Assembly (NCBI GenBank): GCA_023127875.1
Contig: JAGMFA010000149.1
Span: 1 to 5,215, forward strand
DNA length: 5,215 bases
DNA from: Candidatus Zixiibacteriota bacterium
Lineage (GTDB): Bacteria > Zixibacteria > MSB-5A5 > SM1-73
Direction: 5' to 3'
Below are positions 188 to 5,215 of this stretch, in pieces. The translations under genes and the position numbers were made by a program. The first letter of the stretch is position 1. The number at the start of each line of letters is the position of its first letter. The notes under the pieces were generated by a model, which was not told the DNA's origin, did not search any database, and saw nothing but the letters and a program-made list of their open reading frames with translations.

Positions 188-778
188 TTACCGGATGCTC
201 AATTTGAGCCTTTTATCCCACCAATATTTCACATAAAGCAAACTCCAGATCAAAATCGGAAAGATTTGATTGGCAACCAGTACGATGAAATCACCCAGAT
301 AGTGGTAGGCTTTCTGTTGAAATGGCGACCAATAGGGAACGCCACTAACTTCGATATGGAGAGAATACTCACGTTTGACGAAAACAAAAATCTTAAACAG
401 GTGAAGAACAAAAATGATGGCAAAGCCCAAAAGAAAAATCTTGAATCTCTTTTTCCAGCTTATGTGCGGAACAGCCCAGATCAAGGCAAAGAGCAGGACC
501 ATATCAAAATGCAGGACTCTGCTTTTGATTCTCACAGTAAGGTCGGGGTTTTTTTCCGATACCACGTGATGAACAAAAATATGTTTTCCCTGCACCTGCA
601 TTGAATTGGTTATATGCTTACCACCGATTTCGCTGAGCTTGAGTATGAGCACAGAGGGTGTGGCTAAAATGTGGTTATAAACGGGGGAAAGGAAATACCA
701 TAAGACATAGAACAACAAGAAGAAGAAAACCAGTCTAATCAGAAACAGGACTTTTTTGGATTCTATCCTTCCGGACAA
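188..778 (-). CDS. Exosortase H-associated membrane protein
   Basis: This is a predicted inner-membrane partner of exosortase H. It is assigned mainly by position, directly downstream of and overlapping xrtH, and by topology typical of the small membrane proteins paired with XrtH. With the start chosen here it has 196 residues and about four membrane segments (roughly 10-31, 88-106, 112-134 and 164-185). Between the first and second lies a soluble stretch with GGKHI and a second GKHI/VHH motif, probably periplasmic. The first ATG in frame is at 859, but that would overlap xrtH by 125 nt and add an odd Ser-rich N-terminus. A TTG at 778 follows GAGGA closely and gives a short basic N-terminus (SGRIESKK) before the first helix, with a 44-nt overlap that suggests translational coupling. 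The molecular role is unknown. The family assignment is from memory of XrtH loci; the start is inferred. Confidence 0.72.
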   Translation of the reverse strand: MSGRIESKKVLFLIRLVFFFLLFYVLWYFLSPVYNHILATPSVLILKLSEIGGKHITNSMQVQGKHIFVHHVVSEKNPDLTVRIKSRVLHFDMVLLFALIWAVPHISWKKRFKIFLLGFAIIFVLHLFKIFVFVKREYSLHIEVSGVPYWSPFQQKAYHYLGDFIVLVANQIFPILIWSLLYVKYWWDKRLKLSIR

Positions 779-1331
779 AATTCCTCGCCCAAAAATCCCA
801 GACAAAGATGGCGAAGATGATGATGATCGGCTGCCAGACATACACGTGTACCTCTTCAAAAACTGTGGGATATTTTCTTCCTAAAAGGAAAAGCGAAATC
901 ACTCTACCTTGATTGATGGCAAATATTGCAGGTATTCCGATGAGTATACCCATCAATTTCTCTTTTAATCGGGATGGGTAAGCGATGATCCCGGAAAGCA
1001 AAATGGCAGTGGCAAAAGCGCCATTGCATCCATACACCACATTGATTCCATAATCACTGGAGGAAAGATGGGTTCCTGAAACGGAAGTCCACGAGCCAAA
1101 CACGTTCAAAATCACAGAGGAGCAAAAAGCTACAAAGGCGGTAAAAGGCTCCATCACATTTGTGAAGAAGAAACTATTAGCGAGTAAAGCGAAAAAGAAC
1201 ACCAGCGCCAGCCCAAAGAAGATATAGATCTTCACCAGCGCCCAGAGTATTTTCTTCAAACTAAACTTTTTGCGCTGGCTCTCTTTTTCCGAAGTTGGTT
1301 TGCTTCTTCTGGATTTGCCTTTCCCACCCAT
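735..1331 (-). CDS. xrtH: Exosortase H (IPTLxxWG-CTERM-specific sorting transpeptidase)
   Basis: This polytopic inner-membrane cysteine enzyme is expected to cut the C-terminal sorting tail of IPTL-CTERM proteins and pass them on to the envelope or outside. It has 198 residues. A basic, Ser/Lys-rich cytoplasmic N-terminus (1-27) precedes hydrophobic segments at about 31-52, 57-78, 105-119, 126-150 and 166-181. The exosortase catalytic triad is visible in order: Cys102 in VVYGCNGA, Arg143 in NQGRVISLFLLG and His162 in EEVHVYVWQP. The H subtype is supported by two IPTLT(E/Q)WG substrates nearby. The ATG at 1331 is the best start, although its Shine-Dalgarno is weak. A consensus promoter lies about 95 nt upstream, and the leader between them is hairpin-rich. 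The 3' end overlaps the next membrane-protein gene, so the two are likely one transcript. The family call is confident; the substrate link is by family knowledge and proximity. Confidence 0.93.
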   Translation of the reverse strand: MGGKGKSRRSKPTSEKESQRKKFSLKKILWALVKIYIFFGLALVFFFALLANSFFFTNVMEPFTAFVAFCSSVILNVFGSWTSVSGTHLSSSDYGINVVYGCNGAFATAILLSGIIAYPSRLKEKLMGILIGIPAIFAINQGRVISLFLLGRKYPTVFEEVHVYVWQPIIIIFAIFVWDFWARNFVRKDRIQKSPVSD

Positions 1332-1452: not shown

Positions 1453-1523
1453 CGATTAAAAATCTTAGTCGGGCTCTCCGTATGTGGCGAAGAATACTCC
1501 ATCAAAAAACGAATAAAAGGAGT

Positions 1524-1593
1524 GCAAAAGCTTGTTGGAGCGGAGTCCCGATAAATCGGGATAAACTCCAATCCCGTTTCGCGGGGCTTTTGC
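1524..1593. repeat. Multi-branched inverted-repeat element
   Basis: An outer stem GCAAAAGC/GCTTTTGC (1524-1531 with 1586-1593) encloses two arms. The first arm has a stem TTGGAG/CTCCAA (1535-1540 with 1566-1571) carrying an inner hairpin TCCCGA-TAAA-TCGGGA (1546-1561, with flanking pairs). The second arm is CCCG-TTTCG-CGGG (1573-1585). The nested pairing forms a compact cloverleaf-like fold on either strand. It may be an interspersed palindromic repeat or a structured RNA; the sequence alone does not tell which. There is no tRNA-like T-loop or anticodon arm. Confidence 0.7.
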
Positions 1594-1662
1594 GATCTTT
1601 AAAACCGCATCAGTCCGAATTTGGATCCATAGGACTGGTTGTGTGTTAACTTCACATGCGTT

Positions 1663-1702
1663 GTCCGAAACCCCCGCGCCTCTGGCGCAGGGGATTTCGG
1701 AC
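1663..1702. repeat. Long near-perfect hairpin
   Basis: GTCCGAAA (1663-1670) pairs with TTTCGGAC (1695-1702). CCCC pairs with GGGG, and GCGCC pairs with GGCGC around a TCT loop. There is one mismatch and one single-base bulge. No U-tract follows on either strand, so an intrinsic terminator is not supported. Confidence 0.8.
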
Positions 1703-1742
1703 CTACGACTCTTGTGGTTAAAATCAAAGTTTGCCTCCTTTT

Positions 1743-2350: not shown

Positions 2351-2392
2351 CGCTTTCCTGGCGGTGGTCTGCGGTCTGCGAACGCCTTTTTT

Positions 2393-2454
2393 ACCTCTCC
2401 CCCTTTTGTCCCCCTCTCCTTAACTAAGGAGAGGGGGGAAGTAGGGGGTGAGGT
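2393..2454. repeat. Large C/G-rich palindromic repeat
   Basis: A 13-bp perfect stem (2410-2422 with 2425-2437, CCCCCTCTCCTTA against TAAGGAGAGGGGG) lies inside imperfect outer arms ACCTCTCCCCC (2393-2403) and GGGGGTGAGGT (2444-2454). It resembles the CCCTCACCC...GGAGAGGG type of interspersed palindrome seen in many bacterial genomes. It lies about 50 nt past the stop of the gene at 2507, so it could stabilise that transcript's 3' end. The minus strand continues into A-rich, not U-rich, sequence, so it is not a standard terminator. Confidence 0.75.
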
Positions 2455-2516
2455 CAACACCTTTCACCTGATCACCGCTGACGCACAAGCAACTAGCCCT
2501 AAGACCCTAGACCCTG
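2454..2516. repeat. Degenerate heptanucleotide array at the 3' end of the TIG-domain gene
   Basis: The clearest seven-base units on the plus strand are GCAACTA, GCCCTAA, GACCCTA and GACCCTG (2489-2516). More diverged units run back to 2454, including TTCACCT, which also occurs in the array at 4061-4130. The TAG stop of the gene (2509-2507) lies inside the GACCCTA unit, so the array supplies the last residues of the protein. Confidence 0.6.
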
Positions 2517-3646
2517 ACTGCTATCGCCTTTCTCCTTCTAAGGAACACATAGGTGATAAACCCGATCAACACCACCCCAAAGATGATCAGACCCCATTCG
2601 GTGAGGGTGGGGATGTCGGAGCTTACATACGTAAAACCAGAATAAAGAGTATTATAGTCATCCTGCGAAGCATCCATAGGGACTGCTGAGACATCCACAG
2701 AACCAATACTGAAGGAAGGTGGAGTTAGGACTGCATATGTTCCTGTTTCTGGGTCATAGTCTTCAATAATTGCTTCATTCTCACCAAAGGTAATTGTTGC
2801 GTTTGACCCCAGATAAGAACCATAAATCGCTACCACTTGTCCGCCAGCTAAGTCACCGAAATCAGGAATAACGGCCAAAAGAAGCGCATGTGCCACAATA
2901 GGAGCCCCACCCAGCCAAGGTTGGGTTGAATCTACATATTTAATTATTTTAACCTCGGGGCCCTCGATATAAACGAATATTTGATTATCCTCGTTCACAT
3001 CAGCTATTAGGTCAGGATCAGCATTGATTGCTTCTTTAAATGCTTCCAGTATTTCCTCTTGAGTGGATGGATGCTCACCGGCATCTGGTCCCGTTATATC
3101 ATTGTCTACAGTTATAGTAATCGTTCTGTTTACACCATTCACGGAGATTGTGATGGTAGCTTGCCAGGTAGCATTACCCTCTGGCGGAACGGCAGCTCTA
3201 ATACCGCTTAGCTTGATCACTGCATCTGCTAGCACTTTACGACCAAAAGAAACACCAGAAATGTCCGGGTTAGCTGGAACCTCCCAATCTTCTTCGGAAA
3301 CAGTAGGTGTACCTACATGTTCACAAATATGCCCATCGCGCCCGTCGCGGATCCTTACGTAACAATAAGCATTATGCAAACAATCTATTTTGGCCTTCTT
3401 CCAGAAATCATCATTAGAAATCTCGGCTGCATTTTTAATGGCATCACACATTTGATCGCACGTCATACCTGTAGTTATGTTCACTGCAAGAGAATGCGTG
3501 CCAATAGTAATGGTGATAGTACCGTTTTCCGTTGGTGTTCCGGTAATTTCAATCAACTGGGATGGATTTAGACTCCATGAAATACTATATGTTAACAGAA
3601 CAATCAATAAAACATTTAAAAGAAGCATATTTGATTTCTTAAACAT
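2507..3646 (-). CDS. Secreted IPTL-CTERM protein with IPT/TIG domain
   Basis: This is a predicted exported envelope or extracellular protein of 379 residues, a likely XrtH substrate. A Sec signal peptide occupies about 1-25 (FKK followed by a Leu-rich core, with likely cleavage near SWS). Two loosely similar beta-rich modules follow, about 31-75 and 144-230, each with a TITI strand run and then an Asp/Glu-rich helix (DQMCDAIKNA; EEILEAFKEAINAD). Module 1 and its extension hold five cysteines (63, 67, 89, 95, 108). Residues 260-341 look like an IPT/TIG immunoglobulin-like fold (PDFGDLAGG, IYGSYLG, TPPSFSIGSVDV, SGFTYV). The sorting tail is IPTLTEWG (345-352), a membrane span (353-369) and RRRK (370-373). 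The ATG at 3646 has GGAGG six bases upstream. A small-ORF leader lies 198 nt before it. The ligand or partner is unknown; TIG folds suggest binding or adhesion. Confidence 0.92.
   Translation of the reverse strand: MFKKSNMLLLNVLLIVLLTYSISWSLNPSQLIEITGTPTENGTITITIGTHSLAVNITTGMTCDQMCDAIKNAAEISNDDFWKKAKIDCLHNAYCYVRIRDGRDGHICEHVGTPTVSEEDWEVPANPDISGVSFGRKVLADAVIKLSGIRAAVPPEGNATWQATITISVNGVNRTITITVDNDITGPDAGEHPSTQEEILEAFKEAINADPDLIADVNEDNQIFVYIEGPEVKIIKYVDSTQPWLGGAPIVAHALLLAVIPDFGDLAGGQVVAIYGSYLGSNATITFGENEAIIEDYDPETGTYAVLTPPSFSIGSVDVSAVPMDASQDDYNTLYSGFTYVSSDIPTLTEWGLIIFGVVLIGFITYVFLRRRKAIAVRV
2526..2617 (-). repeat. IPTL sorting-tail cassette, copy 1
   Basis: These 92 nt encode IPTLTEWG, the membrane span and the RRRKA end of the sorting tail. 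The ungapped alignment to 4131-4222 differs at five bases only (87 of 92 identical): two synonymous changes and three that alter residues (E/Q, V/L, F/L). The upstream parts of the two genes are unrelated. The similarity therefore points to recent shared origin or gene conversion, as well as selection for the recognition signal. Confidence 0.9.
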
Positions 3647-3844: not shown

Positions 3845-3889
3845 CTACAAAAACGGGCGCTTACCCAGATAGGGAAGGTTGCGCCACAT
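3845..3889 (-). CDS. Conserved 14-residue leader small ORF, copy A (MWRNLPYLGKRPFL)
   Basis: This tiny ORF starts with ATG at 3889 and stops with TAG at 3845. It lies eight bases after GGAGG in a 10-nt Shine-Dalgarno (GGAGGTGATC, 3902-3893), one of the two strongest in the window. The peptide MWRNLPYLGKRPFL matches MWREYPWLGKRPFL encoded at 5161-5117, also upstream of an IPTL-CTERM gene. Both copies have the same length, start and stop position. Differences are synonymous in three codons (Arg3, Gly9, Arg11), one stop substitution (TAG/TAA) and three residue changes (4, 5 and 7), which favours selection on a peptide. It lies 198 nt before the TIG-domain gene. It may be a regulatory leader peptide or a secreted or signalling micropeptide. 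I recognise no known family. A non-coding repeat that happens to be open remains possible. Confidence 0.6.
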   Translation of the reverse strand: MWRNLPYLGKRPFL

Positions 3890-3892
3890 AAA

Positions 3893-3902
3893 GATCACCT
3901 CC
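3893..3902 (-). promoter_or_regulatory. Extended Shine-Dalgarno of small ORF copy A
   Basis: GGAGGTGATC on the minus strand is complementary over ten bases to the GATCACCTCC at the 3' end of bacterial 16S rRNA. Such a long match is much stronger than the sites before xrtH or the larger genes here. Confidence 0.75.
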
Positions 3903-3909
3903 GGGAAAA

Positions 3910-3930
3910 CAGTTTAGAGTTGAGAGTATA
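3910..3930. repeat. Heptanucleotide tract upstream of small ORF copy A
   Basis: There are three units: CAGTTTA, GAGTTGA and GAGTATA. They are identical to the first three units of the tract at 5181-5215. The tract sits seven bases upstream of the Shine-Dalgarno on the minus strand and then diverges. Confidence 0.75.
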
Positions 3931-3961
3931 TGGTTCGATAAACTCACCATCTTCGAGAGTT

Positions 3962-3982
3962 TAGAGAAAATCAAATTCTCTA
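3962..3982. repeat. 7-bp hairpin TAGAGAA / TTCTCTA
   Basis: TAGAGAA (3962-3968) and TTCTCTA (3976-3982) pair around a seven-base loop. It sits between the two IPTL gene units. No U-tract follows on the minus strand. Confidence 0.5.
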
Positions 3983-3984
3983 TA

Positions 3985-4044
3985 GGTGGGTGGCGCAAGC
4001 TCGCATTTAAATCCAGACGGATCGTCCGACCTGCGCCACACACC
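3985..4044. repeat. Imperfect 12-bp inverted repeat between the two IPTL units
   Basis: GGTGGGTGGCGC (3985-3996) pairs with GCGCCACACACC (4033-4044) at 11 of 12 positions. An inner CGGA-TCG-TCCG lies at 4018-4028. The element lies between the 3' heptads of one IPTL gene and the leader of the next, where it could act as a boundary or a 3'-end stabiliser. Confidence 0.6.
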
Positions 4045-4060
4045 TAACATCTATAATCTT

Positions 4061-4130
4061 TTCACCTTTGACCTATCACCTATTAGTTGTTCACTGAGCA
4101 CTGCCAACTGACTACTGAACACTGACTACT
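4061..4130. repeat. Ten in-register heptanucleotide repeats at the 3' end of the Cys-rich gene
   Basis: On the plus strand the units are TTCACCT, TTGACCT, ATCACCT, ATTAGTT, GTTCACT, GAGCACT, GCCAACT, GACTACT, GAACACT and GACTACT, with no gaps. The first group has consensus NNNACCT and the second GNNNACT. The array ends exactly where the 92-nt sorting cassette begins (4131). The TAG stop of the gene (4114-4112) falls inside the array, so the last five residues (VVSVQ) come from repeat sequence. Confidence 0.85.
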
Positions 4131-5029
4131 GCCTTTCTCCTTCTAAGGAGCACATAGGTGATAAACCCAATTAACACCAGCCCAAAGATGATCAGACCCC
4201 ATTGGGTGAGGGTGGGGATGTCTTCTCCTATTGGCCCGTGAATATCTAAGCCCGTAGAGTTATAAGTTACAGTCTTGGTTTGGAAGTCAAAAGTCCCGAA
4301 TCCCAGACCCAGACCCAGTATTGGGTTAGAGGCGGAGAATAAGTCATTGGTGACCAGTGTGACTATTTGCCACCCAAAACCCCCGTCCACCATTGAAGCA
4401 GCCCCGCCCGAAGAGGTATTGGGGACGAGAGTTATATGATTCAGTCCAGTTTCTTTACCATTGTTGAGCATGAATGATGGAACAGTGTATTCAAGAGACA
4501 CCGCCGTTAAATAAACAGAATCAGCATGGGGATGCTCCTCAACAAGAACTTCGATCGTGCCGGAAAATTGTGTGAGTTCAAAATCACCTCCGCCCAAGGA
4601 ATCCGAAACATGGAGAGATACAATATTTTCAGGTGCCGTTTCATCCACGGTAAAAGTAAGAGTATAGGGAGGGGTGCCGAGACTATCTGTCGTCTTTAAT
4701 TTTTGGACAGCTTCTTGTAGATCCTTCCAATTTTTTCCTGTGGGCAGACATAAACACCATATTAGCGTAGTCCAATCTCCAGGGTGGGGCCAGCTCACGC
4801 AAATTCCAGCACCCAACAATCCTGTGCAGCTGTCTCCTACGTCTCCACAGCCGGCACCCGGGTTGGTACAGTAAGGTGTCACATCGCAGTCTCCCGCTTC
4901 AGGGTGGGCGGGAGGTTCACAAATCATGCCCTTACCAGACGGAGACGCGGCACTTGCAATTATTGCATAGGTCAACCAATACCCAATGAGAATACTCACC
5001 GTTAGCAATACTACTTTATACTTAGACAT
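4112..5029 (-). CDS. Secreted cysteine-rich IPTL-CTERM protein
   Basis: This is a predicted exported protein of 305 residues and a likely XrtH substrate; its function is not recognised. A Sec signal peptide spans 1-27 (KYK, hydrophobic core, then a good ASA cleavage site before Ala28). A Gly/Pro/Cys-rich region follows with eight cysteines (37, 48, 54, 61, 68, 77, 92, 94), enough for four disulfides. Residues 100-116 look helical (DLQEAVQKLK). Residues 120-265 are beta-rich with TLTFTVDE, GTIEVLVEEHPHADSVYLTAV and a Gly-rich LGLGLGFG stretch, and have no domain I can name. The tail is IPTLTQWG (271-278), a membrane span (279-295) and RRRK (296-299). The ATG at 5029 has AGGAG eight bases upstream. 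The 14-residue leader ORF ends 87 nt before it. The last five residues derive from heptad repeats. Confidence 0.9.
   Translation of the reverse strand: MSKYKVVLLTVSILIGYWLTYAIIASAASPSGKGMICEPPAHPEAGDCDVTPYCTNPGAGCGDVGDSCTGLLGAGICVSWPHPGDWTTLIWCLCLPTGKNWKDLQEAVQKLKTTDSLGTPPYTLTFTVDETAPENIVSLHVSDSLGGGDFELTQFSGTIEVLVEEHPHADSVYLTAVSLEYTVPSFMLNNGKETGLNHITLVPNTSSGGAASMVDGGFGWQIVTLVTNDLFSASNPILGLGLGFGTFDFQTKTVTYNSTGLDIHGPIGEDIPTLTQWGLIIFGLVLIGFITYVLLRRRKAVVSVQ
4131..4222 (-). repeat. IPTL sorting-tail cassette, copy 2
   Basis: This is the partner of the cassette at 2526-2617, with 87 of 92 bases identical and no gaps. Similarity stops abruptly at both sides: on the 3' side at the start of a heptad array, and on the 5' side just before the IPTL codons. 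Confidence 0.9.
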
Positions 5030-5064
5030 TTTCTTCTCTCCTTTAAATTTAAAAAAATTCCCAT
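5011..5064 (-). CDS. Possible 17-residue upstream ORF overlapping the Cys-rich gene
   Basis: An ATG at 5064 lies five bases after GGAGG (within GGGAGGAGG) and opens the peptide MGIFLNLKERRKCLSIK. It runs in another frame past the ATG at 5029 and stops at 5011, so translating it would compete with or couple to the main gene. There is no equivalent before the other IPTL gene, where a GGAGG (around 3726-3730) is followed by no start codon. It may be only a purine-rich leader. Confidence 0.25.
   Translation of the reverse strand: MGIFLNLKERRKCLSIK
5036..5044 (-). promoter_or_regulatory. Shine-Dalgarno of the Cys-rich gene
   Basis: AAAGGAGAG lies just upstream of the ATG at 5029, with eight bases between AGGAG and the start. 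It supports this methionine, which begins a typical signal peptide. Confidence 0.8.
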
Positions 5065-5116
5065 ATTTTCCTCCTCCCGTTTCTACTATCGTTGCATTCT
5101 GAGATCGCTTCGTACG

Positions 5117-5161
5117 TTACAAAAACGGTCGCTTGCCCAGCCAGGGATACTCACGCCACAT
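5117..5161 (-). CDS. Conserved 14-residue leader small ORF, copy B (MWREYPWLGKRPFL)
   Basis: ATG at 5161, TAA at 5117, with AGGAGGTGATC (5175-5165) placed eight bases upstream counted from GGAGG. The peptide matches copy A at 11 of 14 positions, with MWR, P6 and LGKRPFL invariant. Its stop lies 87 nt before the Cys-rich IPTL gene, against 198 nt for copy A, so the ORF is kept while the spacer is not. The high content of Trp, Arg and Pro and the short length would suit a stalling or attenuating leader peptide, but no attenuator pairing conserved between the two copies is seen. I recognise no known family. Confidence 0.6.
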   Translation of the reverse strand: MWREYPWLGKRPFL

Positions 5162-5180: not shown

Positions 5181-5215
5181 CAGTTTAGAGTTGAGAGTAT
5201 AGAGTTAAGAGTTTA
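5181..5215. repeat. Heptanucleotide tract upstream of small ORF copy B
   Basis: There are five ungapped units on the plus strand: CAGTTTA, GAGTTGA, GAGTATA, GAGTTAA and GAGTTTA (consensus GAGTNNA). The tract reaches the window edge and probably continues. The three units nearest the Shine-Dalgarno are identical to those in copy A. Confidence 0.8.

What the first reader, a model, noticed from the sequence alone, without database searches (positions are those of the whole stretch)
3845..5161. Twin 14-residue small ORFs (MWRxxPxLGKRPFL) ahead of both IPTL-CTERM genes
Two ORFs of identical length, 3845-3889 and 5117-5161, precede the two sorted-protein genes. Their peptides agree at 11 of 14 positions. 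Seven codons including the stop differ in DNA: three are synonymous, one is a stop-to-stop change and three change residues. Each follows a 10-11 nt Shine-Dalgarno. The pattern fits selection on a translated micropeptide that I cannot match to any known family. It could be a leader peptide controlling IPTL protein synthesis, or a functional micropeptide of the XrtH system.
Basis: partly seen in the sequence, partly recalled or inferred. Interest (0 to 1): 0.82.

Follow-up and report, generated by a model that had tools for sequence, protein, structure and literature searches.

The report
Paired 14-codon upstream ORFs, unknown role
Two surface-protein genes in an uncultured Zixibacteria-like bacterium are each preceded by a near-identical 14-codon mini-gene with an unusually strong ribosome-binding site; it looks like a small regulatory leader, but only these two copies could be found, so its function is unproven.

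Summary
On the minus strand, MWREYPWLGKRPFL (5161-5117) and MWRNLPYLGKRPFL (3889-3845) sit 87 and 198 nt ahead of two genes whose products end in IPTL-type sorting signals, near exosortase H (XrtH). Both follow GGAGGTGATC. The 45-nt ORFs differ at 10 bases yet keep 11 of 14 residues; in simulations, 10 neutral substitutions do that in 0.2-1% of trials. Similarity stops at the stop codon. A translated upstream ORF (uORF) is the best reading.

Three limits. There are only two copies. No third was found in 84,980 species genomes (strict pattern), IMG/VR (strict pattern), 132 Zixibacteria genomes (model; 3-mismatch pattern), or upstream of 26 other IPTL-type genes, two of them from the closest XrtH relative held (SM1_73). 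The repeat DNA just upstream is better conserved between copies than the ORF.

I favour a cis-acting leader ORF that sets ribosome loading or mRNA stability of the downstream gene. A specific XrtH-system micropeptide is possible but unsupported. RNA attenuation is not supported: copy A's terminator-like hairpin is weaker in copy B. It is a new member of a known kind (uORF/leader peptide).

The parts
5117..5161 (-). small ORF copy B, MWREYPWLGKRPFL, ATG..TAA
5165..5174 (-). GGAGGTGATC, extended Shine-Dalgarno of copy B (complementarity to the 16S 3' end recalled, not tested)
3845..3889 (-). small ORF copy A, MWRNLPYLGKRPFL, ATG..TAG
3893..3902 (-). GGAGGTGATC, extended Shine-Dalgarno of copy A
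4112..5029 (-). gene B, 305 aa, IPTLTQWG-type C-terminus; copy B ends 87 nt ahead of it
   Evidence: relatives P0110 (86%) and P0111 (52%) over 99% of its length
2507..3646 (-). gene A, 379 aa, IPTLTEWG-type C-terminus; copy A ends 198 nt ahead of it
   Evidence: apart from itself, listed relatives cover 8-32% of it
735..1331 (-). exosortase H (XrtH)
   Evidence: TIGR04177 106.9 bits, cut-off 86
188..859 (-). XrtH-associated membrane protein (NF041730, 46.2 bits, cut-off 35); the TTG start listed overlaps xrtH by 125 nt, the true start may lie further in
3910..3935 (-). repeat tail (contains TATACTCTCAACTCTAAACTG) just upstream of copy A
5181..5206 (-). same repeat tail upstream of copy B
3849..3885 (-). 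terminator-like hairpin (GGCGC..GCGCC) plus T-run inside copy A; weaker and bulged in copy B
   Evidence: coordinates counted by hand

Best explanation
The two 14-codon ORFs are a duplicated, translated upstream ORF (leader ORF) ahead of two exosortase-H substrate genes. Shown: two copies, strong Shine-Dalgarno at good spacing, intact frames, codon-aware divergence, similarity ending at the stop codon, and position ahead of two genes whose bodies are otherwise unrelated. Inferred: ribosomes load efficiently at the strong site, translate or pause on the 14 codons, and thereby set how much of the downstream surface protein is made, through mRNA protection and ribosome occupancy and possibly a pause on the conserved LGKRPFL end. 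The peptide would be no longer than the ribosome exit tunnel (recalled), so its action would most likely be in cis. No single amino acid is enriched, so classical amino-acid attenuation is not indicated.
For: Identity between copies is 13/13 in SD plus spacer and 35/45 in the ORF, then falls to 4/15 and 3/15 after the stop codon. Neutral simulation gives 0.17-0.99%. Genes A and B give a meaningful alignment only over 35 residues at their C-terminal ends, and leader-to-gene distance differs (132 against 243 nt ATG to ATG), so the leader has stayed alike while the DNA between changed. The block is not a detectable dispersed repeat in two genomes that share other intergenic DNA of this window: model R1 finds no copy in SM1_73 or G108, whereas segment 1500-1720 matches G108 at 92% over 85 nt and SM1_73 at 76-82%. 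Leader ORFs with extended SDs that control a downstream gene are documented, e.g. eight-residue rbfL of S. aureus (PMC13009471, passages).
Against: Only two copies, chosen after inspection, so the simulated probabilities are not corrected for that choice. The non-coding 26 nt upstream is 92% identical, more than the ORF at 78%. Antisense frame 1 keeps 10 of 14 residues, only one fewer than the sense frame. No copy is found upstream of 26 other IPTL-type genes. The stop codons lie 87 and 198 nt from the genes, too far for simple translational coupling (distance rule recalled). No expression data exist, and the transcript starts are unknown.
Confidence: 0.45

Rival explanations
1. The strong SD is a 5' mRNA stabiliser (STAB-SD-like): a 30S subunit bound far upstream protects a long 5' untranslated region. 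The ORF is incidental or merely keeps ribosomes moving.
For: The best conserved piece is the 13-nt SD plus spacer (13 of 13), and it lies about 130-260 nt ahead of the gene starts. STAB-SD is described for cry3A as an SD-like sequence that can interact with 16S rRNA without directing translation initiation (PMC4113751, passages).
Against: Conservation continues through the ORF with codon-aware changes and ends at the stop codon. An ATG sits at good spacing in both copies, unlike the cry3A case as described.
Confidence: 0.2
2. The block is a piece of repeated DNA that happens to carry a ribosome-binding site, copied with the neighbouring repeat tail during duplication of the IPTL genes. It is like STAR-associated small ORFs of S. 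aureus and has no role at these genes.
For: The 21 nt just upstream are identical in both copies. Similar stretches occur at other sites in relatives: 20 of 21 bases in G108 (L125) and 17 and 18 of 21 in SM1_73 (L123). S. aureus STAR repeats recruit ribosomes when expressed (PMC13009471, passage).
Against: None of these three places carries the SD or ORF in the 109 nt shown after it. Model R1 finds no copy in G108 or SM1_73. The ORF divergence is codon-aware.
Confidence: 0.2
3. A transcription attenuator: a hairpin plus T-run inside the ORF terminates transcription unless a ribosome is translating through it.
For: A 39-nt piece of copy A folds GGCGC..GCGCC followed by CGTTTTTG, -12.7 kcal/mol, 7 of 200 shuffles fold as well. 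The scanner lists a terminator-like site there. The T-run is kept in copy B.
Against: Copy B's 39-nt piece folds to -8.5 kcal/mol, no better than shuffles (141 of 200), with a bulge. The 66-nt pieces that include the SD are ordinary for both (73 and 118 of 200 shuffles as good), as are the whole leaders. None of 12 predicted pairs has a two-sided compensatory change. Terminator-like sites in the window are near chance level, 7 found against a mean of 5.4, and copy B's is not among them.
Confidence: 0.08
4. A micropeptide acting in trans in the XrtH system, for example on the exosortase or its substrates.
For: Both copies sit by putative XrtH substrates in an XrtH locus. The peptide is cationic with a conserved LGKRPFL end.
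Against: R1 finds no convincing copy in 14 genomes with an exosortase match, 9 of them at 48-71% identity to this XrtH. Fourteen residues leave no room for a usual signal or transmembrane segment. Two copies directly ahead of separate genes point to a cis role.
Confidence: 0.07

Closest known systems
Bacterial upstream ORFs / leader peptides (e.g. rbfL of S. aureus, PMC13009471 passages; uORF4u paper PMC10219788, outline and abstract)
   Same: short ORF with strong or extended SD ahead of a gene for a surface or biofilm function
   Different: rbfL overlaps the SD of its gene, which gives a direct mechanism; here the distance is 87 and 198 nt. No translation or regulation has been shown here.
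STAB-SD 5' mRNA stabiliser of cry3A (PMC4113751, passages)
   Same: strong SD far upstream of the gene start
   Different: STAB-SD does not direct initiation; here each SD is followed by a well-spaced ATG and a similar ORF
STAR-repeat small ORFs of S. aureus (PMC13009471, passages)
   Same: ribosome-binding site with a small ORF next to repeated DNA
   Different: STAR ORFs vary in length; here both are 14 codons and no further copies were found in relatives

Membership tests
translated uORF / leader peptide | intact short ORF with its own ribosome-binding site upstream of a gene | tested here: met
translated uORF / leader peptide | constraint on the encoded peptide rather than on the DNA alone | tested here: inconclusive
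   simulation 0.17-0.99%, but two copies only, third-position excess P = 0.077, upstream DNA more conserved than the ORF
translated uORF / leader peptide | conserved with the downstream gene family in other genomes (usual support, not strictly required) | tested here: not met
   no convincing copy in 132 Zixibacteria genomes or upstream of 26 other IPTL-type genes; close metagenomic relatives could not be read
translated uORF / leader peptide | translation controls the downstream gene | not testable with these tools
   needs reporters or ribosome profiling
transcription attenuator | terminator hairpin conserved in both copies | tested here: not met
STAB-SD stabiliser | SD far upstream of the gene start within the transcript | tested here: inconclusive
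   distance met, but the transcript start is not known
STAB-SD stabiliser | SD does not direct initiation | not testable with these tools
   a well-placed ATG is present in both copies
dispersed repeat with ribosome-binding site (STAR-like) | many copies at unrelated sites | tested here: inconclusive
   none found in relatives; the window's own genome is not held

The most novel reading that the evidence does not exclude
MWRxxPxLGKRPFL is a ribosome-acting leader peptide of a new sequence family that gates synthesis of exosortase-H substrates, linking surface-protein output to translation or sorting status in cis.
Probability: 0.13. Interest if true: 0.65.

Novelty: new member of a known kind. 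Interest (0 to 1): 0.33.

Why it matters
Control of exosortase-sorted surface proteins seems little studied: in the held library no paper contains exosortase together with XrtH, IPTL-CTERM or Zixibacteria, and the one with exosortase and leader peptide is, by its listing, about an archaeal amylase. If the leader acts as proposed, it would be a handle on how these systems set the amount of their substrates. As it stands it is a pair of candidate uORFs in one uncultured organism.

Tried and rejected
Homology of the peptide: Pfam gave one weak match (Zn_ribbon_ISL3, E 0.14) to an artificial joined query and none to the frame-extended peptides; rejected as chance. One paper search for the string LGKRPFL found nothing.

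Near matches to the SD-ATG-TGG stretch in relatives were followed up in part. The SM1_73 match lies inside a 384-codon ORF. The 10 other matches were translated, and none resembles the motif. A six-frame scan of all 141 loci held plus the window (504,041 nt) for the 11 shared residues found only the two known copies; the next best had 6 of 11.

A promoter reading of TATACT upstream of both copies was dropped, because that stretch looks like part of a repeat and no sigma-70 site was listed there. The Rfam scan gave only sub-threshold microRNA and lncRNA models.

Corrected on re-checking: five of the eight matches to the 21-nt upstream stretch (L124, L126-L129) lie in open frames encoding NPFNPTTxIQFRV-type protein ends, so only three (L123 twice, L125) are counted as copies of the repeat tail. 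My first count of other IPTL genes rested on a narrow motif; one search replaces it, taking its places.

Full report
What is there. On the minus strand the order is: small ORF B (5161-5117), gene B (5029-4112), small ORF A (3889-3845), gene A (3646-2507), xrtH (1331-735) and an XrtH-associated membrane protein gene (859-188). XrtH is clear (TIGR04177, 106.9 bits, cut-off 86), as is its associated protein (NF041730, 46.2 bits, cut-off 35). Genes A and B end in IPTLTEWG and IPTLTQWG plus a hydrophobic stretch and RRRKA, but score below the curated cut-offs of PF18203 (both) and TIGR04174 (listed for gene B only). Among the listed XrtH relatives the closest with an organism name is from 'Candidatus Zixiibacteriota' (P0019, 81%). 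The closest in held genomes is SM1_73 (L001, 70-71%).

The pair. The two ORFs and their SDs form a 57-nt repeat at 84%. Ten of 45 ORF bases differ: 2 at first, 2 at second and 6 at third codon positions. Eleven of 14 residues agree. I placed 10 random substitutions on either copy, 100,000 trials for each setting. An intact ORF with at least 11 of 14 residues remained in 0.17-0.74% of trials, and in 0.21-0.99% with the start codon held. This is uncorrected for the fact that the pair was picked by eye. The third-position excess alone is weak (P = 0.077). The sense frame keeps 11 residues; the next best, an antisense frame, keeps 10. By position, identity is 13/13 in SD plus spacer, then 10/15, 12/15 and 13/15 along the ORF, and 4/15, 3/15 and 7/15 in the three stretches beyond the stop. 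The sharp 3' edge at the stop codon is the strongest sign that the ORF is the unit.

Upstream DNA. After a short dissimilar gap, a further 26 nt 5' of the SD are 92% identical, including 21 identical bases. This counts against a simple selection story, because this non-coding DNA is better kept than the ORF. I fetched nine stretches from relatives that matched this or the neighbouring segment. Seven of them held eight places with 17-20 of the 21 bases. On re-checking, five of the eight (L124, L126-L129) lie in open frames encoding NPFNPTTxIQFRV-type protein ends, so they are not the same element. The other three, two in SM1_73 (17 and 18 of 21) and one in G108 (20 of 21, continuing into the same CCTT as copy B), are followed by different DNA without the SD or ORF. 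So a repeat tail of this kind exists apart from the ORF, and its identity in the two copies says little about the ORF.

Copies elsewhere. A degenerate translation-level pattern found nothing in 84,980 species genomes or in IMG/VR; a second pattern also found nothing in IMG/VR. A sequence-only model of the two copies scores them at 65-66 bits. Against all 132 held Zixibacteria genomes it gave 4 matches of 14.7-15.9 bits at E 0.04-0.09 per genome, no more than chance over 132 genomes, though stricter filters apply in such large searches. With the looser setting it gave 5 matches in 4 of 14 genomes with an exosortase match (E 0.08-0.53), and 4 matches in 2 of 11 further genomes, several of which share repeats with this window (E 0.14-0.88); none is convincing, and SM1_73 and G108 had none. 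Of the 14, nine carry an exosortase at 48-71% identity to this XrtH; the other five, at 34-38%, may be other exosortases. The pattern GGAGGTGATCTTTATGTGGCG with up to 3 mismatches gave 11 matches in 11 of 132 genomes. One, in SM1_73, lies inside a 384-codon ORF. I translated the other 10, and none continues as the motif. BLAST with copy A and its SD against phage and plasmid records found nothing. As a control, another intergenic stretch of this window (1500-1720) does recur in relatives: G108 at 92% over 85 nt and SM1_73 at 76-82%. G108 shows no XrtH at E 1e-30 and no IPTL signal at E 0.5, so its lack of the ORF says nothing about linkage to XrtH. It does say the block is not a common repeat there, as far as that assembly goes.

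Other IPTL-type genes. One search lists 64 IPTL-like matches in 9 genomes at E up to 1. For 26 of them I held the surrounding region and scanned 357-450 nt upstream of the first ATG (one frame has no ATG). None contains GGAGGTGATC, and the best match to the 11 shared residues is 5. One further gene, in L001, is cut off at its 5' end. The remaining matches were not read. A few of the genes read have unrelated SD-preceded small frames. The two tandem SM1_73 genes share a different stretch abutting their start codons. So shared leaders between neighbouring IPTL genes are not unique to this window, but this leader was seen only here.

Origin. Genes A and B give a meaningful alignment only over 35 residues at their C-terminal ends. 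Gene B has two full-length relatives (86% and 52%). Gene A's other hits cover 8-32% of it (positions not shown, presumably the tail in most). The leader and the sorting tail therefore behave as modules around unrelated bodies, which fits either cassette-like duplication or maintenance by selection.

Mechanism. The RNA-structure reading fails: copy A's hairpin (-12.7 kcal/mol; 7 of 200 shuffles as good) is weaker in copy B (-8.5; 141 of 200), longer pieces are ordinary, and there are no two-sided compensatory changes. What remains is ribosome binding and translation. I favour a cis-acting leader ORF (0.45), with a STAB-SD-like stabiliser and a ribosome-binding repeat as near rivals (0.2 each). 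Known cases show that each is possible: rbfL and STAR-associated ORFs in S. aureus (PMC13009471, passages) and STAB-SD in cry3A (PMC4113751, passages). The complementarity of GGAGGTGATC to the 16S 3' end, the tunnel length and the reach of translational coupling are recalled, not tested.

Verdict. It is a new candidate of a known kind, of modest interest until the metagenomic relatives are read.

Noticed in passing
window 2525-2614 and 4130-4219 (-); L001 675-764: The DNA of the IPTL sorting signal is unusually conserved at synonymous sites: gene A against SM1_73 has 23 of 26 shared residues with the identical codon, against 75 of 136 in xrtH (Fisher P = 0.0017). The stretch ATCCCCACCCTCACCGAATGGGG also recurs in L066 and L067. 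It may reflect gene conversion, cassette exchange or a nucleic-acid signal.
   Followed up: partly
window 1452-1424 (-): A perfect sigma-70 promoter match (TTGACA-17-TATAAT) lies upstream of xrtH; the same hexamers are visible upstream of xrtH in SM1_73 (sequence printed).
   Followed up: partly
window 5064-5011 (-): A third small ORF, MGIFLNLKERRKCLSIK, with a GGAGGAGG site overlaps the start of gene B; nothing comparable was listed ahead of gene A.
   Followed up: no
window 2390-2457: A long palindrome (33-nt arms, 82% complementary) downstream of gene A; similar C-rich palindromic DNA follows an IPTL gene in SM1_73 (sequence), so it may be a dispersed repeat. Rfam microRNA matches here are sub-threshold.
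   Followed up: partly
L064 (SM1_73): Two tandem IPTL-type genes share an upstream stretch abutting their ATG (GAAAGGAGAAGAA..ACAATG), different from the window's leader.
   Followed up: no
L124, L126-L129 (relatives G108, G104, G107, G105): DNA resembling the window's upstream repeat (AACTCTAAACTG on the other strand) is read in frame inside NPFNPTTxIQFRVGSLEFG-type protein ends; whether repeat DNA entered coding sequence or the likeness is chance was not tested.
   Followed up: no
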